A stretch of DNA of 64,000 nt from an uncultured Alphaproteobacteria bacterium (GTDB lineage: Bacteria; Pseudomonadota; Alphaproteobacteria; JAPOUT01; G958296285), in the NCBI GenBank assembly GCA_958296285.1, contig OY282459.1, positions 818,367 to 882,366 of the forward strand. Direction: 5' to 3'. This document shows, piece after piece, positions 34,661 through 58,334 of this stretch. The translations under genes were made by a program, and so were the position numbers. Position 1 is the stretch's first letter. The number at the start of each line of letters is the position of its first letter. Under the pieces are notes generated by a model. The model was given only the letters and a program-made list of their open reading frames with translations, made no database searches and was not told the DNA's origin.

Positions 34661-36046
34661 TCAGCGTGATGAGTCTTGGCGCTCTGCGTCTCGGCGCTCT
34701 GCGTCTTGGGGCGAGCGTGAGGGTCGCGTGAAATGGATGGGCTGTCCGCGCGGCGGCTCGTCTGTCAGTTCTCCGTGCCACATGACGAGGCGTCCGCCGA
34801 GGATCGTTCCGATCGGCCAGCCTTGGACGCGCATTCCGTCAAAGGGCGTCCATTTGCAGAGGCTTTGGATTTGGCTGTTTGTGATTTCGCGCCGCGCTTT
34901 CAGATCCACGATGGTGAGATCGGCGTCATAGTTGGGCGCGATTCGTCCCTTTTTCGGGATTCCGAAGAGTTCGGCCGGGGCGGCGCTTGTCAGTTGGACG
35001 AGGCGGCGGAGGCTCAATCGTCCGCGATTCATATGATGGAGCATGATTGGCAGAAGCGTTTGCGCGCCTGTCATTCCGGAGGGCGTGTTGGGATAGGTTT
35101 TGTCTTTTTCCTCGCGCGGGTGGGGCGCGTGGTCGGAGCCGATCACATCCACGGTTCCTTCGCGCAGCGCTTTCCACAGGGCTTGGCGGTGATGGGCGCT
35201 TCGGATGGGCGGGTTCATTTGGGCGTAGGCGCCGAGGCGCTCATAGCATTCCGGCGCGGTCAGGGTGAGGTGCTGCGGCGTGGTTTCCACGCTGGCGAGG
35301 TTTTTGTGGCGTTTGAGGAGCGCCATTTCGCCGCCTGTGGAGATGTGGAGGATATGGACGCGTCTGCCTGTTTTTTTGGCGAGATGGAGGAGTCGCCTTG
35401 TGGCTTTGAGGGCGGTTTGGGGGTCTCGCCAGATGGCGTGGCTTTGGACGTTTCCTTTTTCGCGTTTATGGGCTCGGGCGATGAGGCGGGTTTGGTCTTC
35501 GGCGTGGAAGGCGGCGGTTTTGCTTGTGGCTTTGAGGATTTCGGCGATGGTTTCGTCTTCGTCTGTCAGGAGCGATCCTGTGGAGGCTCCCATGAAGATT
35601 TTGACGCCTGGGCAAGCTGGGATTTTTTCCATTTCGGCGAGGAGGTTGATATTGTTTTTTGTTCCGCCTGCGTAGAAGGCGTAGTTGCAGAGCATGGTAT
35701 TTTTGGCGCGTTGGAGTTTATCGCGGAGGTGTTTTGGGGTTGTTGTTGGGGGGTTTGTGTTTGGCATATCGAAGATGGTTGTTGTTCCGCCGAGGATAGC
35801 GGCGCGGCTTCCGGTGAGGAGGTTTTCGGCGGGGTTTGTGTCGGGTTCGCGGAGATGGGTTTGGCTGTCTATGATTCCTGGGAGGATGTGGAGATTTTTG
35901 GCGTTGAGGGTTTGGTTGGCGGAGTGGTGGTTGAGGTTTCCGATTTGGGTGATAGTTTTGTTATTGATAGCGATATCGGTTTTGGTGATGGTGTTGGGGT
36001 TGCAGATGGTTCCGCCGAGGATGAGGATGTCGTGGTGGTTTGGCAT
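34661..36046 (-). CDS. pyrC: Dihydroorotase
   Basis: A 461-residue class I dihydroorotase-type amidohydrolase: LPGIIDSQTHLREPDTNPAE, KIFMGAST with the carboxylated-Lys position, HILHISTGGEM, and VIGSDHAPH with a metal Asp. In the first metal motif the usual HxH is QTH, a variant also known in other alphaproteobacterial dihydroorotases. The coding strand is strongly A+C-rich toward its 5' end, next to repeat E2 (plus strand 35701-35760: G27 T26 C4 A3), and the N-terminus is unusually rich in Asn, Thr, His and Ile, so the bias reaches the protein. Confidence 0.85.
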   Translation of the reverse strand: MPNHHDILILGGTICNPNTITKTDIAINNKTITQIGNLNHHSANQTLNAKNLHILPGIIDSQTHLREPDTNPAENLLTGSRAAILGGTTTIFDMPNTNPPTTTPKHLRDKLQRAKNTMLCNYAFYAGGTKNNINLLAEMEKIPACPGVKIFMGASTGSLLTDEDETIAEILKATSKTAAFHAEDQTRLIARAHKREKGNVQSHAIWRDPQTALKATRRLLHLAKKTGRRVHILHISTGGEMALLKRHKNLASVETTPQHLTLTAPECYERLGAYAQMNPPIRSAHHRQALWKALREGTVDVIGSDHAPHPREEKDKTYPNTPSGMTGAQTLLPIMLHHMNRGRLSLRRLVQLTSAAPAELFGIPKKGRIAPNYDADLTIVDLKARREITNSQIQSLCKWTPFDGMRVQGWPIGTILGGRLVMWHGELTDEPPRGQPIHFTRPSRSPQDAERRDAERQDSSR

Positions 36047-36065
36047 GGTGGCATTCTACATTAAG

Positions 36066-36362
36066 AAGGGGGGTCAAGGGGGGCTTGCCCCCCTTGAAAA
36101 AAGGGGGGGTCGGGGGGAATCCCCCCGAAACGGCTGGGGGGTGGGGTGGGAAAAAAGCTTTTCCGAGCAAGCGAAGCGCAGCGAGGAAAAGCGCCCACCC
36201 CCCAGCCGCCCCTGCTGCAAGAGCTCTTCTAGCAGGGAGGTCGGCGGGCTTTCTCGCGGGCTTGCCTGCGGCTTCGCCCGCTTCGTTTCGCCACGCCCGC
36301 CGACCGTAGCGGGCTTCGCCCGCTTGGTTTTTTTTGGGGGGCTAGCCCCCCAAACCCCCCTT
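36066..36362 (-). repeat. Composite palindromic repeat E2, empty form, opposite to E1
   Basis: About 297 bp. Left to right: AAGGGGGGG cap; CGGGGGGAATCCCCCCG (36111-36127); the V2 arm (CTGGGGGGTGGGGTGGG ... CCCACCCCCCAG); CAAGAGCTCTT (36218-36228) and AGCAGGG; the V1 arm reversed; then an intrinsic-terminator-like hairpin and GGGGGGCTAGCCCCCC ending AAACCCCCCTT. Read on the minus strand the order is V1, SacI-type palindrome, V2, as in E1 on the plus strand. The DNA on the two outer sides has opposite strand bias. Confidence 0.85.
36308..36335 (+). terminator. Intrinsic-terminator-like hairpin within E2
   Basis: AGCGGGC and GCCCGCT pair around a TTC loop, followed by T, T and T8. It would act on rightward transcription but there is no plus-strand gene just left of it; it is part of the right-cap module of the repeat family. 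Confidence 0.55.
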
Positions 36363-36421
36363 CACAGGAGCCCCTTCACAGGAGCAGGAAATAACCCCCC
36401 AAATTAATGTAAAATGAAACC

Positions 36422-37246
36422 ATGACCCATCTCGCAACCACCACCATGCGCGAAATCCAAATCCACGGACCAGACGCAACAAACTTCCTCCAAAATACCA
36501 TCACCCAAAACCCCCAAACCCCCAAACCCGCAACCTACGCAGGACTCCTCACCCCGCAAGGCAAAATCCTCTCCGCCTTCTTCCTCATCAAATCCCAAAC
36601 CCACTGCAAAATCCTCATCCCCCAAACCCTCGCCCAAAATCTCGCCAACAAACTCAACCTCTACAAACTCCGCGCCAATATCCGCATGATAGAAAAAAAT
36701 ACAAAACTCCTCATCACATGGGGAAACGCAAACCCCCCAAAGATCAACCCCAAATCCCAAACCTTCCCCGATCCAAGACTCCCGAAACTCGGAACATTCT
36801 CCATGCCCCCCGAAAACGCCCCCAACATCCCCGCCCCCTCCAACTCCGTTGAAGATTGGCAAAATCACTGCCGCGCGCAAGGCGTCCCCGATTGGAGCGA
36901 TATAGAATGGGGCGCGGACTTCCCAACCGAAATCAATATGGACCTCCTCAACGGCATAGACTACGAGAAAGGCTGCTTCATCGGACAAGAAGTCGTCTCG
37001 CGCATCAAACGGCGCGGACTGGCGCGAGCGCGAATGATCCTCGCCCCCAACGCCCCCGAAAACGCCCCCCGCGACACGCCCATAGAAGCAGGCGGCAGAC
37101 AAATCGGCGTCCTGCGCCGCGGCGGAAAACACGGGCTCGCGCTGACCCGATTAGACCGCCTCAAAGAAGCGGAAGCGAAATCCCTGACGCCCACAGTGAA
37201 AGACGAACCGATCCGCCTCCAAACGCCGCCATGGATGCGCGGATGA
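36422..37246 (+). CDS. ygfZ: YgfZ/GcvT-type folate-binding protein
   Basis: A 274-residue protein with the signature YEKGCFIGQEVVSRIKRRG (K-G-C-x-x-G-Q-E), the family mark of YgfZ, which helps Fe-S enzyme maturation and uses tetrahydrofolate. The first 150 residues are rich in Asn, Gln, Thr, Pro and Lys; plus-strand 36481-36540 is C29 A23 T6 G2, the right-flank bias of E2. The normal composition returns after about 37000. No clear ribosome site before the ATG. Confidence 0.85.
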   Translation: MTHLATTTMREIQIHGPDATNFLQNTITQNPQTPKPATYAGLLTPQGKILSAFFLIKSQTHCKILIPQTLAQNLANKLNLYKLRANIRMIEKNTKLLITWGNANPPKINPKSQTFPDPRLPKLGTFSMPPENAPNIPAPSNSVEDWQNHCRAQGVPDWSDIEWGADFPTEINMDLLNGIDYEKGCFIGQEVVSRIKRRGLARARMILAPNAPENAPRDTPIEAGGRQIGVLRRGGKHGLALTRLDRLKEAEAKSLTPTVKDEPIRLQTPPWMRG

Positions 37247-37821
37247 CGCCCCGCGCATGGCAGAGAATGCTCAGCGGACGGCGCTTGGATCTCCTAGACC
37301 CCTCGCCGCTGGACGTAGAGATTGAGGACATCGCGCACGGTCTCGCGCGACTCGCCCGATGGAACGGACAAACGCAAGGGGCGCATATTTTCTCAGTCGC
37401 GCAGCATTCGGTCTTGGTCTCCGAGATTTTCGCCGAGACCCGTCCGCTCGCGCCGAAGCGCTGGCGTCTGGCAGCCCTCCTCCATGACGCCCCCGAATAT
37501 GTGATAGGCGATCTGATCAGCCCCTTCAAAACGGCGATAGGCTTGGATTATAAAGATTTTGAGGATCGTCTGTTGGAAGCGATCCATCGGCGCTTCGGAA
37601 TAGGCTGGCCGCTCCCGCGAGACGCTCAAGAGGCGATCAAGAAAGCGGACGCCCATGCGGCATTCTCCGAAGCGGTGATGCTCGCCGGCTTCTCCGAGCG
37701 CGAGGCGAAGCGATTCTTCGCGCCCAAAGAGCGTCTCGCGCCCCGCGCTCTTGAGGCTTGGTCGTCTCCCTGCGCCGAGAAGCGCTTCCTTGAGGCGTTT
37801 GCAATGCTCTCTGACGCCTGA
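37243..37821 (+). CDS. HD-domain hydrolase (YfbR-like nucleotidase)
   Basis: A 192-residue protein: RRLDLLDPSPLDVEIEDIAHGLARLARWNGQT, FSVAQHSVLVSEI (metal His) and LAALLHDAPEYVIGDLISPFK (HD), then a later ADAHAAF (Asp). This is the layout of YfbR-type 5'-deoxynucleotidases and related HD hydrolases. I chose ATG 37243, which overlaps the ygfZ stop (ATGA). Confidence 0.83.
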   Translation: MTPRAWQRMLSGRRLDLLDPSPLDVEIEDIAHGLARLARWNGQTQGAHIFSVAQHSVLVSEIFAETRPLAPKRWRLAALLHDAPEYVIGDLISPFKTAIGLDYKDFEDRLLEAIHRRFGIGWPLPRDAQEAIKKADAHAAFSEAVMLAGFSEREAKRFFAPKERLAPRALEAWSSPCAEKRFLEAFAMLSDA

Positions 37822-37844
37822 TAGAAGCGGAAAGGTTCAAGAGA

Positions 37845-44044: not shown

Positions 44045-44935
44045 ATGACGCCCCTCCCGTCTCTTCTGATAGAGCGTCATGTTCGCGCGGCGCTGTTGGA
44101 GGATTGGGGGCGCTTGGGCGACATCACGACCGAGGCGCTCATTCCCTCTGACTTAAAATGCCGCGCCGCTTTGATCGCGCGAGAGGATTGCGTTCTCTGC
44201 GGCGTGTCTGTGGCGGAGGCGGCGTTTCGTCTGACGGGGCGGAGCGTCTCTTTCACGCGGCGCAAGGAGGATGGCGACCGATTGAAAGCCGGCGAAGCGT
44301 TTTTGGAAACGGAAGGCGCGGCGGCGGGGATTCTCTCTGCCGAGCGCGTGGCGCTTAATTTCGCATCGCATCTTTCAGGGATCGCCACGGCGACTGCCGC
44401 GCTCGTCAAGGCGGTTGGGGGTTCGGGCGCTCGCGTCTCTTGCACGCGCAAGACGACTCCAAATCTCCGCGCTTTAGAAAAATACGCCGTGCGGACGGGC
44501 GGCGGCAAAAATCACCGATTGGGTCTTGATGACGCTGTCCTCATTAAAGACAATCATATCGCGCTTGTCGGGAGCGTGAAGGAGGCGTTTAAGCGCGCGC
44601 GGGAGCATGTCGGGCATATGGTCAAGATTGCCGTAGAGGTGGATTCCATGCCGCAGCTGGAAGAAGCGCTGGAGAATGGCGCGGAAGCGATTCTGTTGGA
44701 CAATTTCGGCATAGATCAGTTGCGCGAGGCTGTCGCGCGAAACAAAAAGCGAGGCGGACGAGGCGGGCGCGGGGGTCGGGCGTTGTTGGAGGCGTCGGGC
44801 GGGATCACGCCGGAGAATATCAAGGCGGTGGTGGCGGCGGGCGTGGATGTCGTCTCTGTCGGATGGCTGACGCACTCCGCGCCTGCCGTTAATATGTCTT
44901 TGGAAATGGAAATGGAGAGGGGGGATAAGCGATGA
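44045..44935 (+). CDS. nadC: Nicotinate-nucleotide pyrophosphorylase (carboxylating)
   Basis: A 296-residue quinolinate phosphoribosyltransferase: EDWGRLGDITTEAL, LNFASHLSGIATATAALV, CTRKTTPNLRALEKYAV, GGGKNHRLGLDDAVLIKDNHI, EVDSMPQLEEALENGAEAILLDNF and GGITPENIKAV. A short basic Gly-rich insert (KKRGGRGGRGGRA, about 242-254) interrupts the usual fold late in the protein. ATG overlaps the downstream gene start. Confidence 0.95.
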   Translation: MTPLPSLLIERHVRAALLEDWGRLGDITTEALIPSDLKCRAALIAREDCVLCGVSVAEAAFRLTGRSVSFTRRKEDGDRLKAGEAFLETEGAAAGILSAERVALNFASHLSGIATATAALVKAVGGSGARVSCTRKTTPNLRALEKYAVRTGGGKNHRLGLDDAVLIKDNHIALVGSVKEAFKRAREHVGHMVKIAVEVDSMPQLEEALENGAEAILLDNFGIDQLREAVARNKKRGGRGGRGGRALLEASGGITPENIKAVVAAGVDVVSVGWLTHSAPAVNMSLEMEMERGDKR

Positions 44936-45483
44936 AGTTGGAAAGAGAGACGAGTCAGTTTCTTTTGATTGATGTTCAGGAGAGATTGATGCCTGTCATA
45001 GAGGCGGCGGATTTGACGATAGAGCGCTGCGGCGTTTTGTTGGACGCGGCGCGGGAGATGGAGATTCCCGCGATGGCGTCCGAGCAATATCCGCGTGGGA
45101 TTGGGGCGACTGTGGCGCCGTTGCGCGAGAAGATTGGCAATGCTCCTATTATGGAGAAGATGCATTTTTCGTGCTGTGGGGATGCGGGGATTATGATGCA
45201 TTTGGAGAGTTTGAAGGGTCGGGGGCGAACGCAATGTGTGTTGGCGGGTGTTGAGTCGCATGTATGTGTTATGCAGACGGCTTTGGATTTGAGGGTTCGT
45301 GGGTTTGAGGTTTATGTTGCGGCGGATGCGGTATCTTCGCGGCGTTTGGGGGATAAGTCTGCGGCGATGAAGCGTTTGCGTCATTCTGGGGTACATGTGA
45401 TTACGAGCGAGATGGCGGTTTTTGAGTGGTTAGGGGTATCGGGGACGGATTTATTTAGGCGGGTTTCCAAGTTGGTGAAGTAG
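44932..45483 (+). CDS. Isochorismatase-family cysteine hydrolase
   Basis: A 183-residue YcaC-type protein: FLLIDVQERLMPVI (Asp), EKMHFSCCG (Lys) and LAGVESHVCVMQTALDL (catalytic Cys), the triad of isochorismatase-like hydrolases. It overlaps nadC by four bases. A nicotinamidase or related amide hydrolase would suit the operon but is not shown by sequence. Its 3' half is G+T-rich (45301-45360: G25 T20 C8 A7), the left-flank bias of cassette A. Confidence 0.8.
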   Translation: MKLERETSQFLLIDVQERLMPVIEAADLTIERCGVLLDAAREMEIPAMASEQYPRGIGATVAPLREKIGNAPIMEKMHFSCCGDAGIMMHLESLKGRGRTQCVLAGVESHVCVMQTALDLRVRGFEVYVAADAVSSRRLGDKSAAMKRLRHSGVHVITSEMAVFEWLGVSGTDLFRRVSKLVK

Positions 45484-45504
45484 GGGAGCGCATGCCGCGC
45501 TCCC
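45484..45504. terminator. Inverted repeat after the nad operon
   Basis: GGGAGCGC and GCGCTCCC pair perfectly around ATGCC right after the stop codon. There is no T run, so it may act as a hairpin stabiliser or factor-dependent stop. Confidence 0.45.
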
Positions 45505-45507
45505 GTT

Positions 45508-47710: not shown

Positions 47711-47857
47711 TCCTGCGAGTAGGGGTGTCGGCGGGCTTTCTCGCTCGCTCCGCCACAAGTGGCTACGCTCGGCTTCGTTGCGCCACGCCCGCCGACCATA
47801 GCGGCGCTGTGCGCCGCTCGGTTTTTCTTGGGGGGCTCGCCCCCCAAACCCCCCTCC
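47711..47857 (-). repeat. Reverse V1 arm, right border of cassette A cargo
   Basis: CCTGCGAGTAGGGG, GTCGGCGGGC (47727-47736) to GCCCGCCGAC (47787-47796), a GCGGCG...CGCCGC hairpin followed by T5, then GGGGGGCTCGCCCCCC and AAACCCCCC. It is the 45508-45675 arm inverted. Confidence 0.8.
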
Positions 47858-47895
47858 ACGGGAGAAAGTCAGACCGCCCAAACCCCCAACGCCAC

Positions 47896-48312
47896 TCAGC
47901 CAAAAATCCCCTGCAACAAAACCCCAACCACCGCCGCCAAAATGAAGCCAAACATCCATTTCAACAAAACTATATCCGCTTCTATCTTTGCAAAACGCCC
48001 GTCCATCTTGGCATCCATCTCGGCAAAACGCTTCTCCATCTTGGCATCCATCTCGGCAAAACGCTTGTCCATCTTGGCATCCACCTCGGCAAAACGCTTG
48101 TCCATCTTGGCGTCCATCTCGGCAAAACGCCTGTCCATCTCGCCGCGCAAATCCGCAATGCGCTCATTGGTCTCACCCTGCATCCGAATCATGTCGGCGC
48201 GAAGCTCCCCATAGCGCTCCTGACTCGACTCCAAAGCCTCCACCGCAGCGGCAGCTTTGTCATCGCTGACCTTCGCCTCTTTCAGCGCATCATAAACCGC
48301 CACAAGACTCAT
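47896..48312 (-). CDS. Small coiled-coil membrane protein, paralog 1
   Basis: A 138-residue protein: a conserved helical head (MSLVAVYDALKEAKVSD), then five 11-residue repeats of the type MDKRFAEMDAK (about 59-113) from 33-bp DNA repeats, and a C-terminal membrane helix (LLKWMFGFILAAVVGVLL). The 11-residue period suggests a hendecad coiled coil. It resembles the DUF1640/CCDC90 layout. Paralogs are at 52798-53169 and 54514-54777, one per cassette. The plus strand here is A+C-rich. Confidence 0.75.
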   Translation of the reverse strand: MSLVAVYDALKEAKVSDDKAAAAVEALESSQERYGELRADMIRMQGETNERIADLRGEMDRRFAEMDAKMDKRFAEVDAKMDKRFAEMDAKMEKRFAEMDAKMDGRFAKIEADIVLLKWMFGFILAAVVGVLLQGIFG

Positions 48313-48374
48313 GGCTTTTCTCCTTGCGAGAAAGTCTGTGTAGCATGTCTCTCCCTTCTCCGCAATCTTTCAAG

Positions 48375-48574
48375 AACGCCCGCCGACTATAGCGGGCTCA
48401 CGCCCGCTCGGTTTTTCTTGGGGGGCTCGCCCCCCAAACCCCCCTTCACCTCCAGCTTCTATGCGTTAGTTCCCCTGCGGCAAATCCAAAATGCCTCTCT
48501 ATGAAAAAGATGCCCGCGGCGGCTCGCCGCGAAAAAGATGCCTGTCGCGGCAGCGACCCCCCCAAACCCCCCTT
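48375..48574 (-). repeat. Partial reverse arm with tail
   Basis: Starts at the inner half of the stem (CGCCCGCCGAC), has the GCGGGC...GCCCGC hairpin and GGGGGGCTCGCCCCCC, then the tail found after E1 (from 48448), an extra GCGGCGGCTCGCCGC hairpin and a second CCCCCCCAAACCCCCCTT end. Confidence 0.8.
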
Positions 48575-48600
48575 AACCTTTAACTCCTATTTCGTATAAA
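48573..48600 (+). promoter_or_regulatory. Possible promoter of the serine hydrolase gene
   Basis: TTAACC and TATAAA separated by 16 bases, 34 bases before the ATG at 48635. The -35 hexamer is made by the last bases of the repeat, so the element may supply part of the promoter. Confidence 0.4.
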
Positions 48601-48634
48601 CTCTCCCCAATCAAACAAAATCAAGGAGAAAACC

Positions 48635-49888
48635 ATGCTCAAAACTATCACCACAACCGAAAACCCATTCCAAACCGAAAAACCCGAAAACCTCGGATTC
48701 TCATCCAAACGCCTCGCCCAAATCCCCCACTTCTTCCAATCCTATCTAGACCAAGAAAAAATCCCAGGACTCGCAATCCTCATCGCAAGAGGCGAGAAAA
48801 TCGCCCACTTCAGCGCGCAAGGATTCGCCTCCACAGAAACCAACGCCAAACTCCAAGCCGATTCCATCTTCCGAATCTACTCCATGACCAAACCCATCAC
48901 CAGCGCAGGACTCATGATGCTCTTTGACGAAGGACGCTTCCGCCTAGAAGAGCCCGTCGGGAAATATATGCCGGAACTCGGAGAGATGCAGGTCTGGAAA
49001 GACGGCAGCAATCTGCGATGGCAAACCCGAGGCCCCACAAACCCCATGCGAATCCGCGATCTCCTCACCCACAGCAGCGGACTCACCTATGGCTTCATGC
49101 ATATGCATCCCGTGGATAGACTCTATCGTCATGCGCAGATTGGGGAGCGGCATCTGTCATTGGGGGAGACGGTGGGGCGTTTGGCGGGGATTCCTCTGCT
49201 TTTTGATCCGGGGACGGCGTGGAACTACAGCGTCTCCACCGATATGTGCGGACGCCTCATAGAGATTTTGTCGGGCGAGACGTTGGATGGTTTTTTCGCG
49301 GAGCGGATTTTCAAGCCTCTGGGCATGAGCGATACGGCTTTCGCGGTGGATGCCGGGAAGGCGTCGCGGCTGACGTCCAATTATGATCGTCATCCGAAGA
49401 AGAAGGCGATGCGCGTCATAGATTCTGCGGCGAAGAGCGCCTATTTGCGGATGCCTGCCTTTTTGTCTGGGGGTGGCGGGTTGGTTTCCACGATTGGCGA
49501 TTATTACCGATTCTGTTTGATGCTGTCGCGTGGGGGCGAGTTGGGGGGCGCGCGGTTGTTGTCGCCTGCGACGGTAGATTTGATGATGCGGAATCATTTG
49601 CCTGGTGGTTTGACGTTGTCGGAGTTTTCGTTTGGGTCTTTGTTTAGCGAGAATCGTTTAGAGGGGACGGGTTTTGGCTTAGGGGGTTCTGTGGTTGAGG
49701 ATTCTGCGGAGTTGATGATGCCTGTATCGGAGGGGACGTTTTCGTGGGGTGGCGCGGCGAGCACGTATTTTTGGATTGATCGGCATCGTGAGATTATTGG
49801 GATTATGATGACTCAGTTTATGCCGTCTGATTATTTTCCGTTGCGTCCTCAGTTGCAGCAGTTGGTTTACGGCGCTCTGATAGAATGA
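48635..49888 (+). CDS. Serine hydrolase, class C beta-lactamase family
   Basis: A 417-residue protein: IYSMTKPITSAGLMML (SxxK), a WNYSVSTDMCGRLIE segment at the usual YxN place (YSV, so the Asn is not conserved) and later LLTHSSGL. It resembles EstB/penicillin-binding-like serine hydrolases. AAGGAG lies before the ATG. A native gene between cassettes A and B, with the opposite biases of both on one gene: 48661-48720 is C24 A22 T8 G6, 49621-49680 is T24 G22 A8 C6. Confidence 0.83.
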   Translation: MLKTITTTENPFQTEKPENLGFSSKRLAQIPHFFQSYLDQEKIPGLAILIARGEKIAHFSAQGFASTETNAKLQADSIFRIYSMTKPITSAGLMMLFDEGRFRLEEPVGKYMPELGEMQVWKDGSNLRWQTRGPTNPMRIRDLLTHSSGLTYGFMHMHPVDRLYRHAQIGERHLSLGETVGRLAGIPLLFDPGTAWNYSVSTDMCGRLIEILSGETLDGFFAERIFKPLGMSDTAFAVDAGKASRLTSNYDRHPKKKAMRVIDSAAKSAYLRMPAFLSGGGGLVSTIGDYYRFCLMLSRGGELGGARLLSPATVDLMMRNHLPGGLTLSEFSFGSLFSENRLEGTGFGLGGSVVEDSAELMMPVSEGTFSWGGAASTYFWIDRHREIIGIMMTQFMPSDYFPLRPQLQQLVYGALIE

Positions 49889-49913
49889 CCGATGCCCTGA
49901 CTTGCTCCCTGTG

Positions 49914-50056
49914 AAGGGGGGTGTGGGGGGCTCGCCCCCCGCGAGAAAGGGGGGATCGGGGGGAATCCCCCCGAAAGGTCGGCGGGCGTGGCGCAACGAA
50001 GCGGGCGAAGCGCGACAGCGCAAGCCCGCGAGAAGCCCGCCGACCCCCCTGCTCGC
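49914..50056 (+). repeat. Forward V1 arm, left border of cassette B
   Basis: AAGGGGGGTGTGGGGGG, GGGGGG CTCG CCCCCC, CGGGGGGAATCCCCCCG and the V1 stem GTCGGCGGGC (49978-49987) to GCCCGCCGAC (50035-50044), ending CCCCCCTGCTCGC. Confidence 0.85.
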
Positions 50057-50067: not shown

Positions 50068-52599
50068 TTACGGCTGTGAAAAGATATTTCTAATTTCCTT
50101 CTTTGCCTTTGCCCTCGCCATTATCCTTTTTCGAATCTCCTTGGCGATCTTCTCCCTTACCTCCTTCTCTTTGGGAATGGGAAGCTGGACTTCTCCCAAT
50201 CTGTTCCCAATCGTTGAGAGAGTCGCTTGAACAAAAGTTCTTTCGTCGATTTGCCTCCGAACAATAGGCACATGTAGAAGGTGCAAGAGAAGATATGGGT
50301 TCAGCTTCTTTCGATCTGACGATCTGATTTTCAAGAAGTGGTTCTGCACCAACATTCTCAGGTCGTTCTTTGTTAGTATGATGGATTCTCCGATCCTATA
50401 AGTTCCATCTTTGACAAATAGGATATCCCGCTCTTGCAAATCTTGCTTTCGTTTATATTTGAGATAGGTCATCTCGTCCACCTTTTGGACAGCATCGTTT
50501 CTTGGCTCCCAGCATCCGATGTCAGATGTTCTCAGAAATGGTATATCATCATAAATGCTATACTCCTTAGCAGTTGCGGATTCACCTACGCCCTTTATTT
50601 TTAGAACGCCTTCATCAATTAGACTCCGAACTGTCTTCATTTCGTATTCTCCAGAGTTTTCCATATTACACAGATCCGCGACTGTGTCGGGATTGTAGTA
50701 TCTAGGAACTAGAATACCGTCCTTTAAATCTTGTTCAAGCAAGGTGAACCCAAGGCGGTTAAATCCCTCGATAACCCGGTTTGAGTTTTTCCTATAGATT
50801 TCAGCTGTCTCTGAAAACTCCTCATCCAAAACTTCTTCTTCACCATTGCTTACATAGATTTCCCTCCCCCGCGTGTCGTGACCACACTTTTCGACCACAC
50901 TCATCATTATGGGATAATTCTCCTTCTTATCCCCCTCCCATTTTCTCAATAGAAGGACACTCGTTTTTGTATGAGTATGCGGCATGAAGGTGTTATGTGG
51001 ACAATCAACAACAGCCAAAATTTCTGCCTTATCTTTAATCCACTCACGGATATACCCATCAGTCGGATTGCCAAAAACGCCATCTGGCAAAACAATTGCC
51101 ATTCTCCCGCCATCTTTTAACAAATCCAAACAACGCTCTATAAAGAGGGTTTGTGGTTCGGTTTCTTTAGGTGAGGCAGTTTTCACCACCCACCCATTTT
51201 CATTTTGCACGTCTTCTTTCTGCCTGCTCCATTGCTGAGCAAGTTCATATTGCCCCAATATGCCCTCATCTTTGATTTTTATATTCCTCCCGAAAGGCGG
51301 ATTGGTAAGAATCACATCGTATTGTCTCAGCCTACCGTTCCTGTACAGGATATTGTGTGATGCAGGCTCCCACTCATTAGGGTTTTTTAAACTATTCTCC
51401 CTGACTACCTTACTCTTTCCGTCACCAATAATGGACATATATGCCTTGCATATTCTAACAAGGCTCATCTCCTTATCTATTCCGTAAAAATCCCTGCTCG
51501 CAATTTTGCTTTGCGATTCTTTGAGATTTTCTCCTTGATATTTTGGGTCTTCTGCCATGGTTTTCCACACATGCTCAAGGGCATAAATCAAAAACCCTCC
51601 ACTGCCACAAGCTGGGTCTAAAACCTTCTCTTCTGGTCGAGGGTCAAGCATTTCAACTGCCATTTTTACGACTTGCCGTGGAGTGAAAAACTCGCCTTTC
51701 TCTCCAGCAAACTGCCTCTCTGCAAAAACCTCAAAGGCATCACCAATAACATCCTTATCCGTCTTGTTAAGACTAAACGTTTCAAGCTCTCCAACAACTT
51801 TCCTAACGGATTCGGCATCAAGATCAATACCCTCGTGCTGTTGGAAAATTCCTTCATCAACAAGGCTATTCTTGACTTCCTCCCACAACTTCTCAACATT
51901 TTCTTTTACCTGCTGAGCCGTATCATTGATCCCGACTCTGAATTTAGGTGGTTTATCTTGATAGTGGAGCTCATCGTGAATTTTGCAGAAAATGAGCCGT
52001 GTCATTTCGGCTCCCAGTTTCTCTTTGCTAGAGATATTTGAGTTTGCATAGAGGTGATGGAATATCGTCCGGAAAACAGGCTTCAAGTATCTCACCGGCC
52101 TTAAATCGTTCTTCGTGATTCTGCCAATGTCCTCAAAGGTTTCCCCCTTGCGAGGGATTTGAAAAATATAATCCCGTTTTATCTCGCCAGTTGTTACATC
52201 CCTGTATACATATTCGGTCTGCTTGCCATTAGTCCAAACGCCCCACAAGCAGCAAGTCGCAGACATATAACTCTCCAGTTGTTTCAATCCCCCCCTCTTT
52301 GAAGGGGATTTAGTCTCTACTATTCCCAAAATATCTCTGCTTTGGTTGCGCCTTGTTATATCCGCTGTCTTATAGACAACAATGTCCGCACGCTCACTCC
52401 TATTCTTTCTACTGCGTCTTTCTCCTCTCTGTATCGAAACTTCGATATCCATCTGCTCAAAGCAATAGTCATAGTTGTCACGCAGAATAGTTTCATATTC
52501 TTGGCGCACAGCTTCTTCCGGCTTTCTTATATCAACCAGCTTACCTGTTGCTTTGTCAGGAACATGTCCTTCCTGTAGAGTGGTGGTTTGCTCTTCCAT
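50068..52599 (-). CDS. Single-chain type I-like restriction-modification protein (HsdR_N-like, HsdM, specificity part)
   Basis: An 843-residue protein. The N-terminus has a PD-(D/E)xK domain of the HsdR_N kind (RADIVVYKT with Asp72; GIVETKSP, Glu95 and Lys97); the middle an N6 methylase with DPACGSGG (328-335) and NPPF (433-436) in the gamma order; the end (about 620-843) an S-like target-recognition part with FLRTSDIG and a helical KEKEVREKIAKEIRKR. All three activities in one chain resemble type IIG enzymes. GC is about 40-45% in lines checked, far below the flanks. It begins near arm 52681 and ends 12 bases after the left arm. Confidence 0.82.
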   Translation of the reverse strand: MEEQTTTLQEGHVPDKATGKLVDIRKPEEAVRQEYETILRDNYDYCFEQMDIEVSIQRGERRSRKNRSERADIVVYKTADITRRNQSRDILGIVETKSPSKRGGLKQLESYMSATCCLWGVWTNGKQTEYVYRDVTTGEIKRDYIFQIPRKGETFEDIGRITKNDLRPVRYLKPVFRTIFHHLYANSNISSKEKLGAEMTRLIFCKIHDELHYQDKPPKFRVGINDTAQQVKENVEKLWEEVKNSLVDEGIFQQHEGIDLDAESVRKVVGELETFSLNKTDKDVIGDAFEVFAERQFAGEKGEFFTPRQVVKMAVEMLDPRPEEKVLDPACGSGGFLIYALEHVWKTMAEDPKYQGENLKESQSKIASRDFYGIDKEMSLVRICKAYMSIIGDGKSKVVRENSLKNPNEWEPASHNILYRNGRLRQYDVILTNPPFGRNIKIKDEGILGQYELAQQWSRQKEDVQNENGWVVKTASPKETEPQTLFIERCLDLLKDGGRMAIVLPDGVFGNPTDGYIREWIKDKAEILAVVDCPHNTFMPHTHTKTSVLLLRKWEGDKKENYPIMMSVVEKCGHDTRGREIYVSNGEEEVLDEEFSETAEIYRKNSNRVIEGFNRLGFTLLEQDLKDGILVPRYYNPDTVADLCNMENSGEYEMKTVRSLIDEGVLKIKGVGESATAKEYSIYDDIPFLRTSDIGCWEPRNDAVQKVDEMTYLKYKRKQDLQERDILFVKDGTYRIGESIILTKNDLRMLVQNHFLKIRSSDRKKLNPYLLLHLLHVPIVRRQIDERTFVQATLSTIGNRLGEVQLPIPKEKEVREKIAKEIRKRIMARAKAKKEIRNIFSQP

Positions 52600-52680: not shown

Positions 52681-52786
52681 GCCTTGCCTCGCTACGCCCG
52701 GCTTTGTTGCGCCACGCCTGCCGACTATAGCGGCGCTCCGCGCCGCTCGGCTTTTCTTGGGGGGCTCGCCCCCCAAACCCCCCTCA
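52681..52786 (-). repeat. Truncated reverse arm, right border of cassette B cargo
   Basis: From within the V1 stem (CGCCTTGCCTCGC...CCTGCCGAC) through the GCGGCG hairpin with its T run, to GGGGGGCTCGCCCCCC and AAACCCCCC. The outer half of the V1 stem and the central palindrome are missing. Confidence 0.75.
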
Positions 52787-52797
52787 CCTAACGCCAA

Positions 52798-53169
52798 TCA
52801 GCCAAAAATGCCGTCGAGCAGAATCCCAACCAAACTCGCCAAAATGAACCCAAACATCCATTTCAACAAAACTATATCCGCTTCTATCTTTCCTATCCTG
52901 ACATCCATCGCCGCAAAACGCCTGTCCATCTCGGCGCGCAAATCCGCAATGCGCTCATTCGTATCAGCCTGCAGAGCCGTCATGCGCGCATTCGTGTCCG
53001 CCTGCAGAGCCGTCATGCGCTCATTGGTCTCACCCTGCATCCGAATCATGTCGGCGCGAAGCTCCCCATAGCGCTCATGACTCGACTCCAAAGCCTCCAC
53101 CGCAGCGGCAGCTTTGTGATCGCTCACCTTCGCCTCTTTCAGCGCATCATAAACCGCGACAAGACTCAT
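52798..53169 (-). CDS. Small coiled-coil membrane protein, paralog 2
   Basis: A 123-residue protein with the same head (MSLVAVYDALKEAKVSD) and C-terminal helix (LLKWMFGFILASLVGIL) as paralog 1. Its middle holds two repeats of MTALQADTNAR in place of the longer MDKRFAEMDAK array. The neighbouring arms match those of paralog 1. Function unknown; constant association with the cassettes suggests a role with the cargo. Confidence 0.75.
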   Translation of the reverse strand: MSLVAVYDALKEAKVSDHKAAAAVEALESSHERYGELRADMIRMQGETNERMTALQADTNARMTALQADTNERIADLRAEMDRRFAAMDVRIGKIEADIVLLKWMFGFILASLVGILLDGIFG

Positions 53170-53231
53170 ATCTTATCTCCTTGCGAGAGAATCTGTGTAG
53201 CATATCTCTCTCTTCTCCGCAATCTTTCAAA

Positions 53232-53306
53232 AGCGCCCGCCGACTATAGCGGGCTTGCGCCCGCTTGCTTTTCGCGGGGGGTGTCGCACCCCCCGCACCC
53301 CCCTTC
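53232..53306 (-). repeat. Partial reverse arm
   Basis: CGCCCGCCGAC, the AGCGGGC...GCCCGCT hairpin, then GCGGGGGGTGTCGCACCCCCCGC and ACCCCCCTTCACC, a variant cap. Confidence 0.75.
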
Positions 53307-53317
53307 ACCTTAAGCTT

Positions 53318-54367
<1,050 letters not shown>

Positions 54368-54376
54368 TTAGAGAAA

Positions 54377-54500
54377 AAGGGGGGTGTGGGGGGCGAAGCC
54401 CCCCGCGAGAAAGGGGGGATCGGGGGGAATCCCCCCGAAAAGTCGGCGGGCGAGAGCGAGACGAAGTCCACAAGCCCGAAGGGCGCAGTGAAACGAAGAA
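54377..54500 (+). repeat. Forward arm, left border of cassette C
   Basis: AAGGGGGGTGTGGGGGG, GGGGGG CGAAG CCCCCC, CGGGGGGAATCCCCCCG and GTCGGCGGGC (54442-54451), then a degraded remainder that lacks the closing stem half. Confidence 0.8.
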
Positions 54501-54513
54501 GGCGCAGATTCGT

Positions 54514-54777: not shown

Positions 54778-54829
54778 GATTGTCTCCTTCTGTTTTTTTG
54801 ATCATAGCGCTTTCCTGTCTTTTTCCGCA

Positions 54830-54943: not shown

Positions 54944-57112
54944 ATGGCTAAAGAGGCAAAATATAAACTCCAAGGTGACGCGCCGCTCCGCGACCCGAAA
55001 GATGATCTCTTGGGTCACGCGAAATTTGCCAAAGATTTAGCAGAAAGCATTATCGGTCTTAAGCCACCAGAGGACAGAAGCTTCGTCTATGGTCTTTACG
55101 GCAAATGGGGGGCAGGCAAAAGCACTGTGCTCAATTTCGCTGAACATTACATCAATAAGAGTAATCAAAAGAACGGCAAGTCAAAGATTGTAGTCTTTAA
55201 GTTCAATCCGTGGATGTTCTCGGGGTCGGAGAATCTCACGAGGGTTTATTTTGAACAGCTGCACGTCAGACTAAACAAGGAAGGAAAATTTTGGAAAAGG
55301 GTTTCACAAAAAATCGCACAATTGAGTATGGTGGCTGCCCCTGTTGTTGGGGAGATACTCATTCCGAGTTCTGGAGTCCTTATAACGGGGGTTGCAAAGA
55401 ATGGTTCCCCCGCTGATAGACAAGAAAAATCTGATCAAGACCTTCACCATGCGAAAGAAAGCATTGCCGATGCGTTGAGAAATCAGGACGACAAGATTCT
55501 AGTGATTATAGACGATCTGGATCGGCTTTTTAAAAAGGAAATCAGACAGATCATAAGAGTGATTAAGGCGGTGTGTGATTTCCCGAATATCATTTATCTA
55601 ATCGCCTGCGATTCGGAGAAGGTCGCTAGCGCTCTCAGTGATAAGAAGGAGGAAGTCGACGATGGTTATGATTACCTAGAAAAAATCGTGCAGCTCTCCT
55701 ATAACCTCCCCAATCCCGACTGGGCAAGATTGTACAATCTTTTCTTCGAGAATTTGGATTCCATATTTGGGCATGGAAACCATTATGACGACAAGGATTT
55801 GATCCAACTCAGTTCCTGGATGTCGAATGATTTTCGTATGGGTTTTGGCCAGTGCCTTAAAAATTTCAGAAATGTAAAGGCTCTCATCAATTCCATTGTA
55901 GCATGTTATCCTCTAGTTCGGGGTGAGGCGCATATCAAGGATTTTGTTGAGGTTCAAGCGCTTCGCGTATTTTATCAACAGGCGTATCAGTGGGTAGGTA
56001 ACAATAAGAATCTTTTCACGGGTTCTGCCGACCCCTTGCTTGGAGGCGATGAGCAAAAACAAAGAGAAAGAAAGATGAAATTATACGAGCCTTTGCATCA
56101 ATTGTTTAGTGAAAACGAGACTGGTAAAAGGGATGTTTGCCAAGCATTGATAAAAAGGTTATTCCCAGAATATAAGAAAGCCTTCCGTTCCCATGTGGGA
56201 AGTGACGTTCAGAAATGGAACAGCGAGCACAGAATATGCAGTCCAGAATGGTTTGATCTCTACTTTAGACTCTCCATACCAGAGGGGGCTTTTGGTTTCA
56301 AGGAGATAAGGGATATTGTCGCTTTGGCAGATCGCCCGACTGAGTTAAAGGACAAGCTAAGTTCTCTCATAAAAGAAGGACGCCATCGGAAATTCCTCCA
56401 AGAATTAAAGACTCATCCCGAAGAAGAGATTCCCACGCCGAAAATCCAACCTTTGCTTCAAGCCATTTTGGACTCAAGTAGCGAGGAGCTAGAAAAAGTG
56501 CCGACCGATGGAAAACACGACCCAATCTCTGAGTGGAACGGCATATTAGGGAACGTGCAGCTCGTTCTTAATAGATTCATAGAGCGTCTTGATAGCGAGG
56601 AGGAGAGGTTTCACCTTCTCAAGACGATTTTTGGAAACTCTGAATCCATATCCATTGTAGTGATGTTAGCGTATCATGTTTTATCAGCGGAAGATAATGA
56701 AGACAATATTGTCACTCCCTCTCACGCTCGAGAAATTGAATCTTTGCTTCTGGATCGGATCAGAGAATCCGCAAATAATAACTGCCTTCCTCATACTCCC
56801 TTCTTTATCAGCATTCTTCATCATCCCTGGCAAAAATGGGGGACAGAAAGAGAGGTGAGGGAATATGTCGCAAAACTGACAACTTCTGACAAGGGGATCC
56901 TTCTTTTTCTAATAGGCCACAGAGGCTCAGGAGATCGGCTCGAGAGCATAGAAAAGCTTATGGGAGGAAAGCATATGCTAGAAAAATTGGTTGGGAAGGC
57001 GCGCATAATTCTAGCCGAGAACGATCAACTAACGCAGTTTGAGAGGGAAGTTCTCCAGGCGCTCATAGATCAAAAGGATAATTCCGAAAACTATCGGCGA
57101 TATCATAACTAG
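54944..57112 (+). CDS. KAP-family P-loop NTPase, defence-associated
   Basis: A 722-residue protein: Walker A GKWGAGKST (53-61), FNPWMF (87-92), Walker B ILVIIDDLDRL (185-195) and a hydrophobic stretch (about 127-151) between them where KAP proteins usually carry membrane helices. KAP NTPases are common in defence islands and in membrane-linked effector systems. Mixed, lower-GC composition than its surroundings. No clear ribosome site at the ATG, but AGAGA precedes it. It ends 38 bases before the right arm, whose hairpin may terminate it. Confidence 0.82.
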   Translation: MAKEAKYKLQGDAPLRDPKDDLLGHAKFAKDLAESIIGLKPPEDRSFVYGLYGKWGAGKSTVLNFAEHYINKSNQKNGKSKIVVFKFNPWMFSGSENLTRVYFEQLHVRLNKEGKFWKRVSQKIAQLSMVAAPVVGEILIPSSGVLITGVAKNGSPADRQEKSDQDLHHAKESIADALRNQDDKILVIIDDLDRLFKKEIRQIIRVIKAVCDFPNIIYLIACDSEKVASALSDKKEEVDDGYDYLEKIVQLSYNLPNPDWARLYNLFFENLDSIFGHGNHYDDKDLIQLSSWMSNDFRMGFGQCLKNFRNVKALINSIVACYPLVRGEAHIKDFVEVQALRVFYQQAYQWVGNNKNLFTGSADPLLGGDEQKQRERKMKLYEPLHQLFSENETGKRDVCQALIKRLFPEYKKAFRSHVGSDVQKWNSEHRICSPEWFDLYFRLSIPEGAFGFKEIRDIVALADRPTELKDKLSSLIKEGRHRKFLQELKTHPEEEIPTPKIQPLLQAILDSSSEELEKVPTDGKHDPISEWNGILGNVQLVLNRFIERLDSEEERFHLLKTIFGNSESISIVVMLAYHVLSAEDNEDNIVTPSHAREIESLLLDRIRESANNNCLPHTPFFISILHHPWQKWGTEREVREYVAKLTTSDKGILLFLIGHRGSGDRLESIEKLMGGKHMLEKLVGKARIILAENDQLTQFEREVLQALIDQKDNSENYRRYHN

Positions 57113-57150
57113 CTCACGAAAATATCGCTCGTGCATAGCTTACCTACATT

Positions 57151-57403
57151 GCAAGAGCTCTTGTAGCAGGGGGGTCGGCGGGCTTCTCGCAGACTCGTCT
57201 CGCTACGCTCGCCTCGTCTGCTTCGTTGCGCCACGCCCGCCGACTCGTAGGCTGCCTTCGGCAGCCTTGTTTTTCTTGGGGGGCTAGCCCCCCAAACCCC
57301 CCTTCACCTTCAGCTTCTATGCATTAGTTCCCCTGCGGCAAAAACAAGCGCCTATCCATGAAAAAGATGCCTGTCGCGGCAGCGACCCCCCCAAACCCCC
57401 CTT
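57151..57403 (-). repeat. Reverse V1 arm with tail, right border of cassette C
   Basis: GCAAGAGCTCTTG (57151-57163), AGCAGGGGGGTCGGCGGGC, the V1 stem to CGCCCGCCGAC, a GGCTGCC/GGCAGCC hairpin with T run, GGGGGGCTAGCCCCCC, then the tail and a second CCCCCCAAACCCCCCTT end. Confidence 0.85.
57250..57274 (+). terminator. Intrinsic terminator after the KAP gene
   Basis: GGCTGCC and GGCAGCC pair around TTC, followed by TTGTTTTT. It is the right-cap hairpin of the repeat family and would end rightward transcription from the KAP gene. Confidence 0.7.
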
Positions 57404-57407
57404 TACC

Positions 57408-58334
57408 TTAAGCTTCTGCACTACGAGACAAACCCAAAGCCTCACAAAACTCCCTAACAAAATCCCCCTGATTCAAAGTATAGATATGAAAATGACGCGA
57501 CCCGCCCGCAATCAACCGCTCGCACTGCTCAACCGCAAGCCGAACCGCCAAAGAACGCCGCGAAGCCAAACTATCCCCAAAAACCTCATGAGCCCTCCGC
57601 AACCAACCAGGAACAGAAGCCCCACACTTCCCAGCCATCCGAACAATCCCAGAAAAATTCGTCGTCGGTATGATCCCATGAACAATCGGAACCTCAATCC
57701 CCGCCAACCTCACACGCTCCAAATAACGCAAATGACAATCCGTATCAAAAACAAACTGCGTGATCGCACGACACGCCCCCGCCTCAACCTTCCGCTTCAA
57801 TAAATCAATCCCCTCATCCACAGACGCCGACTCCGGATGCCTCTCAGGATAAGCGCTGACGCTGACGTCAAAATCGCCAACCCCCCTTATCGCCCGAATG
57901 AAATCCGGCGTGGAAGCGAAACCATCATCCCGAGCCGCATAAGACGCCATGTCAGGCATGTCGCCCCGAAGCGCCACAATCCGATCCACCCCCATCTCCT
58001 TATAAAAACGAACCGCCCGAAGAAGAGCCTCCCGCGAAGAGCCGGCGCATGTCATATGCGGCGCGACCGGAATATCCGTCTCGCCGCGCAAGCGCTCTAT
58101 AACCCGCCGCGTCCGCGCGATCGGATGCTCGCCCCCCGCGCCCCCCGATCCAAACGCCCCCTGCGTCACCGAAATGAACGCAGGCGACCATGCCGAGAAA
58201 CCTCGGACAGCCTCCCAAAGACGCGCCTCCATCTCAGACTTCTTCGGCGGAAAAACCTCAAAAGACACGACAAGAGAACGCAAAGCGTCTCCGCTCTGCT
58301 CCCTATAGGACGAGGCTGAACGGCGCTCTTCCAC
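57408..58334 (-). CDS. metF: Methylenetetrahydrofolate reductase
   Basis: A 308-residue FAD enzyme making 5-methyl-THF: VVSFEVFPPKKSEMEARLW (Glu), FISVTQGAFG, HMTCAGSSREALL, IVALRGDMPDM, VSAYPERHPES and ITQFVFDTDCHL. The start codon is a GTG at 58334. The plus strand over its 3' part is A+C-rich (57421-57480: A25 C21 T9 G5), the right-flank bias of cassette C, and returns to normal toward 58000. Confidence 0.93.
   Translation of the reverse strand: MEERRSASSYREQSGDALRSLVVSFEVFPPKKSEMEARLWEAVRGFSAWSPAFISVTQGAFGSGGAGGEHPIARTRRVIERLRGETDIPVAPHMTCAGSSREALLRAVRFYKEMGVDRIVALRGDMPDMASYAARDDGFASTPDFIRAIRGVGDFDVSVSAYPERHPESASVDEGIDLLKRKVEAGACRAITQFVFDTDCHLRYLERVRLAGIEVPIVHGIIPTTNFSGIVRMAGKCGASVPGWLRRAHEVFGDSLASRRSLAVRLAVEQCERLIAGGSRHFHIYTLNQGDFVREFCEALGLSRSAEA

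What the first reader, a model, noticed from the sequence alone, without database searches (positions are those of the whole stretch)
34661..58000. Mirror-symmetric G+T / A+C strand bias around every repeat locus
I counted 60-base plus-strand windows on the outer sides. Left of each locus: 4141 G25 T14 A11 C10; 35701 G27 T26 C4 A3; 45301 G25 T20 C8 A7; 49621 T24 G22 A8 C6; 54121 G26 T23 C6 A5. Right: 4921 C31 A20 T5 G4; 36481 C29 A23 T6 G2; 48661 C24 A22 T8 G6; 53341 C24 A19 G10 T7; 57421 A25 C21 T9 G5. A control at 1201 is C19 G16 T14 A11. All ten flanks agree, for genes on either strand, fading within about 0.5-1 kb, and the cargo lacks it. A 3' single strand exposed on each side of a break at the palindrome, losing A and C to deamination (to G and T), gives this sign.
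Basis: partly seen in the sequence, partly recalled or inferred. Interest (0 to 1): 0.93.

Follow-up and report, generated by a model that had tools for sequence, protein, structure and literature searches.

The report
Mutation shadows around breaking DNA palindromes
Around most of the complete palindromic repeats sampled across one bacterial chromosome the DNA letters are skewed in mirror image for about a kilobase on each side, which is likely the scar of DNA breaks recurring at the palindromes and would let break-prone sites be read from sequence alone.

Summary
In 99 palindrome clusters from about 1.13 Mb of this 1.733-Mb alphaproteobacterial genome, the mean left-minus-right (G+T-A-C) skew is 0.475; random placement gives 0.001 (sd 0.021, maximum 0.079 of 5000). 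Of 49 strong plus-to-minus switch points, 46 sit on a repeat cluster. The skew recurs in 15 later-fetched stretches, fades by about 1.2-1.5 kb, reaches 0.61-0.70 at 4-fold sites for genes on either strand, shows no replication-direction effect, and is absent from one flanking gene in 80 relatives. Complete palindromes are two-sided in 33 of 43; clusters with one hairpin type only, mostly halves beside cargo, are one-sided in 37 of 43. The strand whose 3' end faces the palindrome has lost C (to T, partly G) and some A, much like the asymmetry reported at human meiotic breaks (PMC7615360, passages). I commit to recurrent breakage with 3'-strand exposure. AddA is encoded; SbcD, Ku, Y1 transposase and Y-family polymerases were not detected, so the cutter is unknown, and no break was measured. 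No comparable repeat family turned up in 40 other genomes, plasmids, phages, IMG/VR or Rfam.

The parts
4001..4508 (.). left flank, plus strand G+T-rich (+0.26 and +0.29 in two 250-bp bins)
4509..4900 (.). complete palindromic locus 1: outer G-run arms, C1 hairpin, core, C2 hairpin
4901..5500 (.). right flank, plus strand A+C-rich (-0.46 and -0.38 from 5001 on)
34501..36064 (.). left flank, G+T-rich, inside the minus-strand amidohydrolase gene 34661-36046 (I take it for dihydroorotase, recalled)
   Evidence: 80 relatives lack the skew
36065..36365 (.). palindromic locus 2 with C1 and a C2-like hairpin; the 311-nt stretch folds as one multibranched structure, DNA z -8.4
36366..37250 (.). right flank, A+C-rich (-0.26 to -0.54), inside a plus-strand CAF17/GcvT-like gene 36422-37246
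44751..45498 (.). left flank, G+T-rich, mostly in a plus-strand isochorismatase-family gene
45499..45663 (.). left half-locus (C1) of a split locus
45680..47380 (-). cargo: N6/N4 DNA methylase, no skew, interval GC 0.47
47727..48577 (.). right half-locus clusters (47727-47856 and 48376-48577) with a small ORF between
48578..49130 (.). right flank, A+C-rich: first part of a plus-strand serine-hydrolase gene 48635-49888
49131..49913 (.). left flank, G+T-rich: the same gene switches sign about midway between two loci
49914..50053 (.). left half-locus of the second split locus
50068..52599 (-). cargo: N6 DNA methylase with HsdR-N-like start, no skew, GC about 0.43
52691..53306 (.). right half-locus of the second split locus
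53307..53900 (.). right flank, A+C-rich: 3' part of the minus-strand nitronate-monooxygenase-like gene 53318-54310
53950..54375 (.). left flank, G+T-rich: 5' part of the same gene
54376..54452 (.). left half-locus of the third split locus
54944..57112 (+). cargo: KAP NTPase, PifA-like, no skew, GC about 0.44
57164..57403 (.). right half-locus of the third split locus
57404..58250 (.). right flank, A+C-rich, in the minus-strand methylenetetrahydrofolate reductase gene

Best explanation
Most complete copies of a ~300-bp palindromic repeat sampled in this bacterial chromosome are flanked by mirror-image G+T / A+C skews about 1.2 kb long, and these skews were likely written by DNA breaks recurring at the palindromes, where the exposed 3'-ended strands would lose C (and some A) by deamination before repair. 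Shown here: the skew, its centring, its decay, its strength at 4-fold sites, its independence from gene strand and from replication direction, and its absence in relatives' copies of one flanking gene. Inferred: a break or nick near the centre of the folded palindrome; removal of the 5' strands over ~1 kb on both sides, most likely by AddAB (AddA is encoded; AddB was not searched); C to U (read as T, partly ending as G) and A to hypoxanthine (read as G) in the 3' strand; and recombinational repair that restores the palindrome, so that the same site is hit again over evolutionary time. Also inferred: the cargo (defence-type genes) lies between the two halves because it entered at such a break. 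The cutter is unknown.
For: Skew centred on the repeats: 46 of 49 strong switch points; observed 0.475 against 0.001 +- 0.021; repeat in later stretches. 24 isolated clusters with both arm motifs, chosen without regard to skew (a few are halves by length): left above 0 in 22, right below 0 in 24; profile 0.38 near the locus, 0.20 at 675 bp, 0.05 at 1375 bp. Purine fraction stays 0.48-0.54 while keto bases rise, so mainly transitions. 4-fold skew 0.70 and 0.61 for the two gene orientations; order pos3 > pos1 > pos2; T/(C+T) rises 0.24 to 0.75 and 0.19 to 0.66, G/(A+G) 0.76 to 0.93 and 0.73 to 0.88 (flanks selected for skew above 0.15). No replichore effect: 0.018 +- 0.034 (n=15) and -0.016 +- 0.025 (n=17) among loci skewed on both sides, and -0.014 +- 0.047, -0.073 +- 0.049 and -0.032 +- 0.067 (n = 5, 7, 11) in three chromosome segments without that selection; origin placed from parB and dnaA. 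Superposition between neighbouring loci and flat cargo. Complete loci two-sided 33 of 43, C1-only clusters one-sided 37 of 43. Relatives' copies of the flanking amidohydrolase gene: -0.006 +- 0.044 against -0.47 here (n=80). Polarised replacements: C>T 15.7, T>C 3.3; amino-to-keto 34.7 against 19.3. AddA full-length, 1010 bits. Strand-asymmetric C>N and A>N within 2 kb is described at human meiotic breaks (PMC7615360, passages); yeast inverted repeats raise mutation up to 8 kb on both sides through breakage and end processing (PMC3681665, passages).
Against: No break was measured. SbcD, the known bacterial palindrome nuclease, was not found (nor in the Caulobacter control), so the cutter is unnamed. 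No Y-family polymerase, so the C>G part has no obvious polymerase. A>G is not in excess among polarised replacements (5.0 against 5.0), and the methylenetetrahydrofolate reductase gene alone shows no direction (C>T 2.3, T>C 2.0). Two of 43 complete loci show no skew and eight are one-sided, one for lack of a scorable right flank. Left and right magnitudes of a locus do not correlate (rho 0.12, p 0.50, n=32). In Caulobacter, AddAB processing reaches markers more than 100 kb away (PMC5443536, passages), much further than 1.2 kb. The human paper reports off-centre peaks at 700-800 bp for several mutation types; here the profile falls steadily. Gene absences rest on one 93.5%-complete assembly with withheld stretches.
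Confidence: 0.62

Rival explanations
1. Palindromes act as fork barriers or local replication-termination sites: the lagging-strand template of the arriving fork stays single-stranded for about one Okazaki fragment and deaminates.
For: Same sign as a replication terminus (G+T on the strand leading into the site); the length is like an Okazaki fragment (recalled); hairpins and G-runs stall polymerases (recalled).
Against: Forks arrive from one side in each replichore, yet left and right flanks are about equally strong in both (with selection for two-sided loci; without). The rest of the sampled genome has little regular replication skew.
Confidence: 0.12
2. A nick rather than a double-strand break: an unknown strand-specific nuclease nicks each arm and the 3' end is displaced as a flap, as in rolling-circle or transposition chemistry.
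For: Exposes the same 3'-ended strands; the arms are hairpin-rich like substrates of HUH nucleases (recalled).
Against: No Y1-type transposase match in the genome; other nickases not searched. C1-only clusters are mostly one-sided (37 of 43) although each still carries its hairpin.
Confidence: 0.11
3. The element inserts preferentially where skew already switches, or the flanks were imported with it.
For: Would also give perfect centring.
Against: The flanking genes identified in the window belong to ordinary metabolic families. The amidohydrolase gene is unskewed in 80 relatives. One gene reverses its skew between two loci. Two loci that sit within 0.8 kb of another lie inside its gradient without a left-side skew of their own (281738 after 280561, 632326 after 631400), as expected of younger insertions.
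Confidence: 0.06
4. Selection for oriented recombination words (Chi-like, G+T-rich) next to break sites.
For: Known Chi words are G+T-rich; TTGGGGTT is over-represented (50 seen, 23.2 expected) on the 3'-facing strand.
Against: Caulobacter putative Chi GCGGTGGT 6 seen, 4.5 expected; E. coli Chi 2 seen, 1.6 expected. The skew is spread over synonymous sites, codon positions and all neighbouring-base contexts.
Confidence: 0.04
5. Transcription or R-loop asymmetry around the repeats.
For: The non-template strand is exposed during transcription.
Against: Skew is similar for genes on either strand (4-fold 0.70 and 0.61) and reverses inside single genes. Transcripts leaving the locus would give the opposite sign.
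Confidence: 0.03

Closest known systems
Strand-asymmetric mutation at human meiotic break hotspots (PRDM9/SPO11; PMC7615360, passages read)
   Same: Asymmetry within ~2 kb of fixed break sites with 1-2 kb of resection; C>N and A>N on the forward strand, the complement on the reverse, including C>T, C>G and A>G
   Different: Bacterium; sites are palindromes rather than PRDM9 motifs; here it is a base-composition record, not a set of new mutations; no off-centre peak; breaks not measured
Mutagenesis by fragile inverted repeats in yeast (PMC3681665, passages read)
   Same: Inverted repeats break, ends are resected, flanking genes on both sides mutate, and repair restores the repeat
   Different: Needs Sae2 and Pol zeta; reaches 8 kb; strand direction not the readout; engineered sites
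E. coli mutagenic break repair (PMC5542668, passages read)
   Same: Bacterial break repair that mutates
   Different: Depends mainly on Pol IV/DinB, a family not detected here
Mitochondrial heavy-strand G+T enrichment (recalled, not tested)
   Same: C>T and A>G in a strand left single
   Different: Whole-genome replication asymmetry, not local mirror zones
REP/BIME and other small bacterial palindromic repeats (recalled)
   Same: Multi-copy, hairpin-forming, between genes in the window
   Different: ~300-bp composite with outer G-run arms and two different inner hairpins; no Y1/RAYT transposase match; no Rfam match at the window's loci

Membership tests
Break-hotspot strand-asymmetric mutagenesis | Asymmetry centred on the site and mirrored | tested here: met
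Break-hotspot strand-asymmetric mutagenesis | Loss of C and A on the 3'-ended strand, over resection-like length | tested here: met
   composition-based; C dominates
Break-hotspot strand-asymmetric mutagenesis | Directional substitutions from ancestor to descendant | tested here: inconclusive
   C>T over T>C 15.7 to 3.3, A>G over G>A 5 to 5; one of four genes without direction
Break-hotspot strand-asymmetric mutagenesis | Physical double-strand breaks at the site | not testable with these tools
   needs end-mapping
SbcCD cleavage of palindromes | SbcD nuclease encoded | tested here: not met
   13 of 14 control genomes matched, the one without being Caulobacter, the alphaproteobacterial control
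AddAB-type end resection | AddA encoded | tested here: met
   1010 bits against cut-off 860.75; AddB not searched
REP elements with RAYT transposase | Y1/RAYT transposase in the genome | tested here: not met
   5 of 14 controls matched
Non-homologous end joining (cargo capture) | Ku encoded | tested here: not met
   1 of 14 controls matched
Replication terminus-like skew | Stronger skew on the side from which forks arrive | tested here: not met
Known structured RNA family | Rfam match at the loci | tested here: not met
   window only: one 5S rRNA and two tRNAs

The most novel reading that the evidence does not exclude
This bacterium carries a chromosome-wide set of fixed, heritable break hotspots, a bacterial counterpart of meiotic hotspots: palindromes that are cut again and again, repaired by recombination that restores them, and used as landing sites through which defence genes are exchanged, at the price of a kilobase-wide mutation shadow in the neighbouring housekeeping genes.
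Probability: 0.3. Interest if true: 0.95.

Novelty: new variant of a known kind. Interest (0 to 1): 0.85.

Why it matters
If the reading is right, the places where a chromosome breaks, and the length and polarity of the single strands that follow, can be read from one genome sequence without any experiment. It would be a natural, evolutionary-scale record in a bacterium of the strand-asymmetric mutagenesis known from meiotic breaks. It would connect palindromes, end resection and the docking of defence genes. It also makes a direct test possible: every locus predicts a break site, the exposed strand and the length of exposure.

Tried and rejected
Gene-direction effect: rejected (4-fold skew 0.70 and 0.61 for the two orientations). 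Replication direction: rejected as main cause. Chi-like or other oriented words: no word found that explains it; TTGGGGTT is over-represented about two-fold and stays unexplained. Imported flanks: rejected for one gene with 80 relatives. SbcCD cutting and Ku joining: genes not found, but the Caulobacter control also lacks an SbcD match and only 1 of 14 controls has Ku, so these absences are not remarkable. Y1 transposase: not found. Endonuclease V: not found, and not in the Caulobacter control either. UDG-family proteins are present, two matches, so loss of that whole family is not the explanation. Y-family polymerases: not found, although 11 of 14 controls, Caulobacter included, have them. 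Search for the element elsewhere: the 16-base arm motif gave 0-12 hits per genome at up to one mismatch in 40 other genomes, against 157 here; the listed ones were all one-mismatch hits and the list was cut. A G6/C6 hairpin pattern matched in 7 of 240 genomes including this one; the next most frequent, G097 and G186, lie in plain G/C runs as far as listed. No match in IMG/VR (exact 25-mer), plasmids or phages. No close relative came from genome contigs (best 80 kept, best 56% protein identity). A first shift-based null was flawed because some shifts wrapped back onto the loci; I replaced it by random placement. Left/right magnitude correlation: none. (second table), 21, 31 and 63 use flanks selected for skew above 0.15; the replichore and correlation lines use loci above 0.1 on both sides; and the rest of 56 are unselected. 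Literature: ten searches, of which I saw the listings; no listed title or abstract start described mirrored skew around palindromes in a bacterium, within that open-licence library and those terms.
Full report
What was checked. The profile of the window shows plus-strand G+T excess to the left and A+C excess to the right of the repeat loci, dropping to background beyond about 1-1.5 kb.

What the loci are. The repeats are composites of about 300 bp (I printed 26 of 44). Outer arms with G-runs (for example AGGGGGGTTTGGGGGGCTAGCCCCCC and its inverse) enclose short hairpins, then two different large hairpins, C1 (GTCGGCGGGC...GCCCGCCGAC) and C2 (GCGTGGGTGGG...CCCACCCACGC, with variants), on the two sides of a core around GAGCTC. 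The names C1 and C2 are mine. One locus folds as a single multibranched structure in which the outer arms pair (DNA parameters, -112 kcal/mol, z -8.4). The 16-base C1 word occurs 157 times in the 1.733-Mb genome with up to one mismatch, against 0-12 times in each of 40 other genomes. The window's loci have no Rfam match; one locus has no match in plasmids or phages, and a 25-base C1 word none in IMG/VR. A G6/C6 hairpin pattern matched in 7 of 240 genomes of the class including this one, with 361 hits here; the next, G097 (80 hits) and G186 (23), lie in plain G/C runs as far as listed.

How general the skew is. I took 39 evenly spaced stretches with the window: 842,516 bases, 25,650 N. After dropping three stretches (L049, L050, L068), 88 clusters were called, 77 with an arm motif. 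Left 500-bp flanks exceed +0.15 in 50 of 77, right flanks lie below -0.15 in 58 of 76, and wrong signs beyond 0.15 are 3 and 0. Background: 827 windows, sd 0.10. Fifteen further stretches, taken later for another reason (broad skew), were scored by the same rule: 14 of 22 and 16 of 22, wrong signs 1 and 0. With all 99 arm clusters the mean left-minus-right skew is 0.475; random placement within the same stretches gives 0.001, sd 0.021, maximum 0.079 of 5000. Searching the sequence without reference to the repeats (L049, L068 and L165 left out), 49 points have left >= +0.2 and right <= -0.2; 46 lie within 300 bp of a repeat cluster and the three others are weak (0.20-0.24). The opposite switch occurs 18 times: 8 have a cluster within 1.3 kb on both sides, 9 on one side only, 1 on neither.

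One-sided and two-sided loci. Complete loci (C1, C2, core) are two-sided in 33 of 43, one-sided in 8 (one of them without a scorable right flank) and without skew in 2. Clusters with C1 but no C2, typically halves on either side of cargo, are one-sided in 37 of 43, two-sided in 5 and without skew in 1. The remaining 13 of 99 clusters fall in smaller classes (4 two-sided, 7 one-sided, 2 none). Of 31 short intervals between neighbouring clusters, 13 swing from at most -0.2 to at least +0.2 (GC 0.52-0.63), 8 are flat with GC 0.43-0.54 (cargo by position or composition), and 10 are mixed (my tally). In the window the plus-strand serine-hydrolase gene 48635-49888 and the minus-strand nitronate-monooxygenase-like gene 53318-54310 both reverse their skew between two loci. 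The three cargo proteins examined are a DNA methylase, a methylase with an HsdR-like start, and a PifA-like KAP NTPase. Two loci that sit within 0.8 kb of another lie inside its gradient without a left-side skew of their own, as expected if skew takes time to build up.

The mutational character. On the strand whose 3' end faces the locus, base fractions within 500 bp are A 0.148, C 0.176, G 0.382, T 0.294 against A 0.210, C 0.303, G 0.286, T 0.201 farther off (selected flanks). The purine fraction moves little, 0.48-0.54. At 4-fold sites the skew next to the locus is 0.70 when the gene's coding strand is that strand and 0.61 when it is the other; from 2.5-4 kb to 0-250 bp C falls from 0.44 to 0.12 and 0.35 to 0.11, T rises 0.14 to 0.35 and 0.08 to 0.22, A falls 0.10 to 0.04 and 0.15 to 0.08, G rises 0.32 to 0.50 and 0.42 to 0.58 (selected flanks). 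C is therefore the main loser, with T the main and G a second gainer. Third positions shift most, then first, then second. All neighbouring-base contexts shift the same way. In 24 isolated clusters chosen without regard to skew (both arm motifs present; a few are halves by length) the mean is +0.297 left and -0.340 right; the profile falls from 0.38 to 0.20 at 675 bp and 0.05 at 1375 bp.

Direction of change. For four genes next to loci I compared conserved columns of homologues (80, 118, 119 and 119 sequences) with the window protein. Of 118 differing columns 77 need one nucleotide change; 68 lie within 900 bp. C>T 15.7 against T>C 3.3; A>G 5.0 against G>A 5.0; all amino-to-keto 34.7 against keto-to-amino 19.3 (fractional counts). 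The amidohydrolase gene carries most of this and the methylenetetrahydrofolate reductase gene shows no direction. In 80 relatives the first 600 nt of the amidohydrolase gene have coding-strand skew -0.006, sd 0.044, range -0.127 to +0.120; here it is -0.47.

Replication and transcription. parB lies at 355.8 kb and the stronger DnaA match at 451 kb. Taking the origin near 0.40 Mb, loci skewed on both sides show no difference between flanks in either replichore (0.018 +- 0.034, n=15; -0.016 +- 0.025, n=17). That selection could hide one-sided loci; the isolated clusters, unselected, give -0.014 +- 0.047 (n=5), -0.073 +- 0.049 (n=7) and -0.032 +- 0.067 (n=11) in three segments, also without the excess on the fork-arrival side. 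Independence of gene strand speaks against transcription.

Mechanism. What remains is a process that exposes the 3'-ended strand on both sides of the palindrome for about 1 kb, irrespective of the direction of forks and genes. That is the geometry of a resected double-strand break. The human meiotic-break paper reports, in the passages I read, strong strand asymmetry in the flanking 2 kb, made of C>N and A>N on the forward and G>N and T>N on the reverse strand, none in the central 100 bp, and names deamination and translesion synthesis as sources of C>T, C>G and A>G (PMC7615360); it also reports off-centre peaks that I do not see here. Yeast inverted repeats break and raise mutation up to 8 kb on both sides, and repair restores the repeats (PMC3681665). 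AddA is encoded. SbcD, Ku, Y1 transposase, endonuclease V and Y-family polymerases were not detected; UDG-family proteins were. SbcD, Ku and endonuclease V are also without a match in the Caulobacter control; Y1 transposase and Y-family polymerases are matched there. The cutter is therefore unknown; candidates are a Holliday-junction resolvase acting on the extruded cruciform or a dedicated nuclease (inference). In Caulobacter, AddAB processing extends far beyond 1 kb (PMC5443536), so the short range needs either an early stop or rapid repair.

Known or new. The kind of process is known from eukaryotes. A chromosome-wide, base-composition record of it around one palindrome family in a bacterium was not listed by ten literature searches, within an open-licence library. 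I file it as a new variant of a known kind, with the break itself still to be shown.

Noticed in passing
G000:C1 about 1,449,700-1,485,000 and 1,672,000-1,727,000 (L066, L162, L050, L166, L069, L167): Two long blocks with fairly steady skew (about -0.2 and +0.2 over about 35 and 55 kb), not centred on palindromes; a second, short DnaA-C-terminal match lies at 1,688,587. Possibly an integrated replicon.
   Followed up: partly
L049 (G000:C1:1579701-1599700): The stretch is almost wholly a ~1.21-kb tandem repeat, open in one minus-strand frame over all 20 kb (6,666 codons): part of a giant repetitive protein gene.
   Followed up: no
window 45680-47380, 50068-52599, 54944-57112: Low-GC defence-type cargo (methylases, HsdR-like start, PifA-like KAP NTPase) sits between the two halves of split palindromic loci.
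   Followed up: partly
window 47896-48312 and 52798-53169, perhaps 54368-54859: Small related ORFs, the first with 33-bp internal repeats and only weak Pfam matches, recur beside the half-loci; relation of the third is from reading the sequence only.
   Followed up: no
flanks of loci, sampled stretches: The octamer TTGGGGTT is about two-fold over-represented (50 seen, 23.2 expected) on the 3'-facing strand within 1 kb of loci; unexplained.
   Followed up: partly
window 10465-13295: Three diverged direct copies of a ~1-kb segment in tandem (families D1, D3, D9 and D14), spacing about 0.98 kb.
   Followed up: no
window 48635-49888 and 57408-58334: Relatives of both genes (68% and 60% identity) lie on contigs of the same length, 16,035 bases, perhaps one syntenic relative; not fetchable here.
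   Followed up: no
whole genome G000: No Y-family (IMS) polymerase match, although 11 of 14 control genomes including Caulobacter have one.
   Followed up: no
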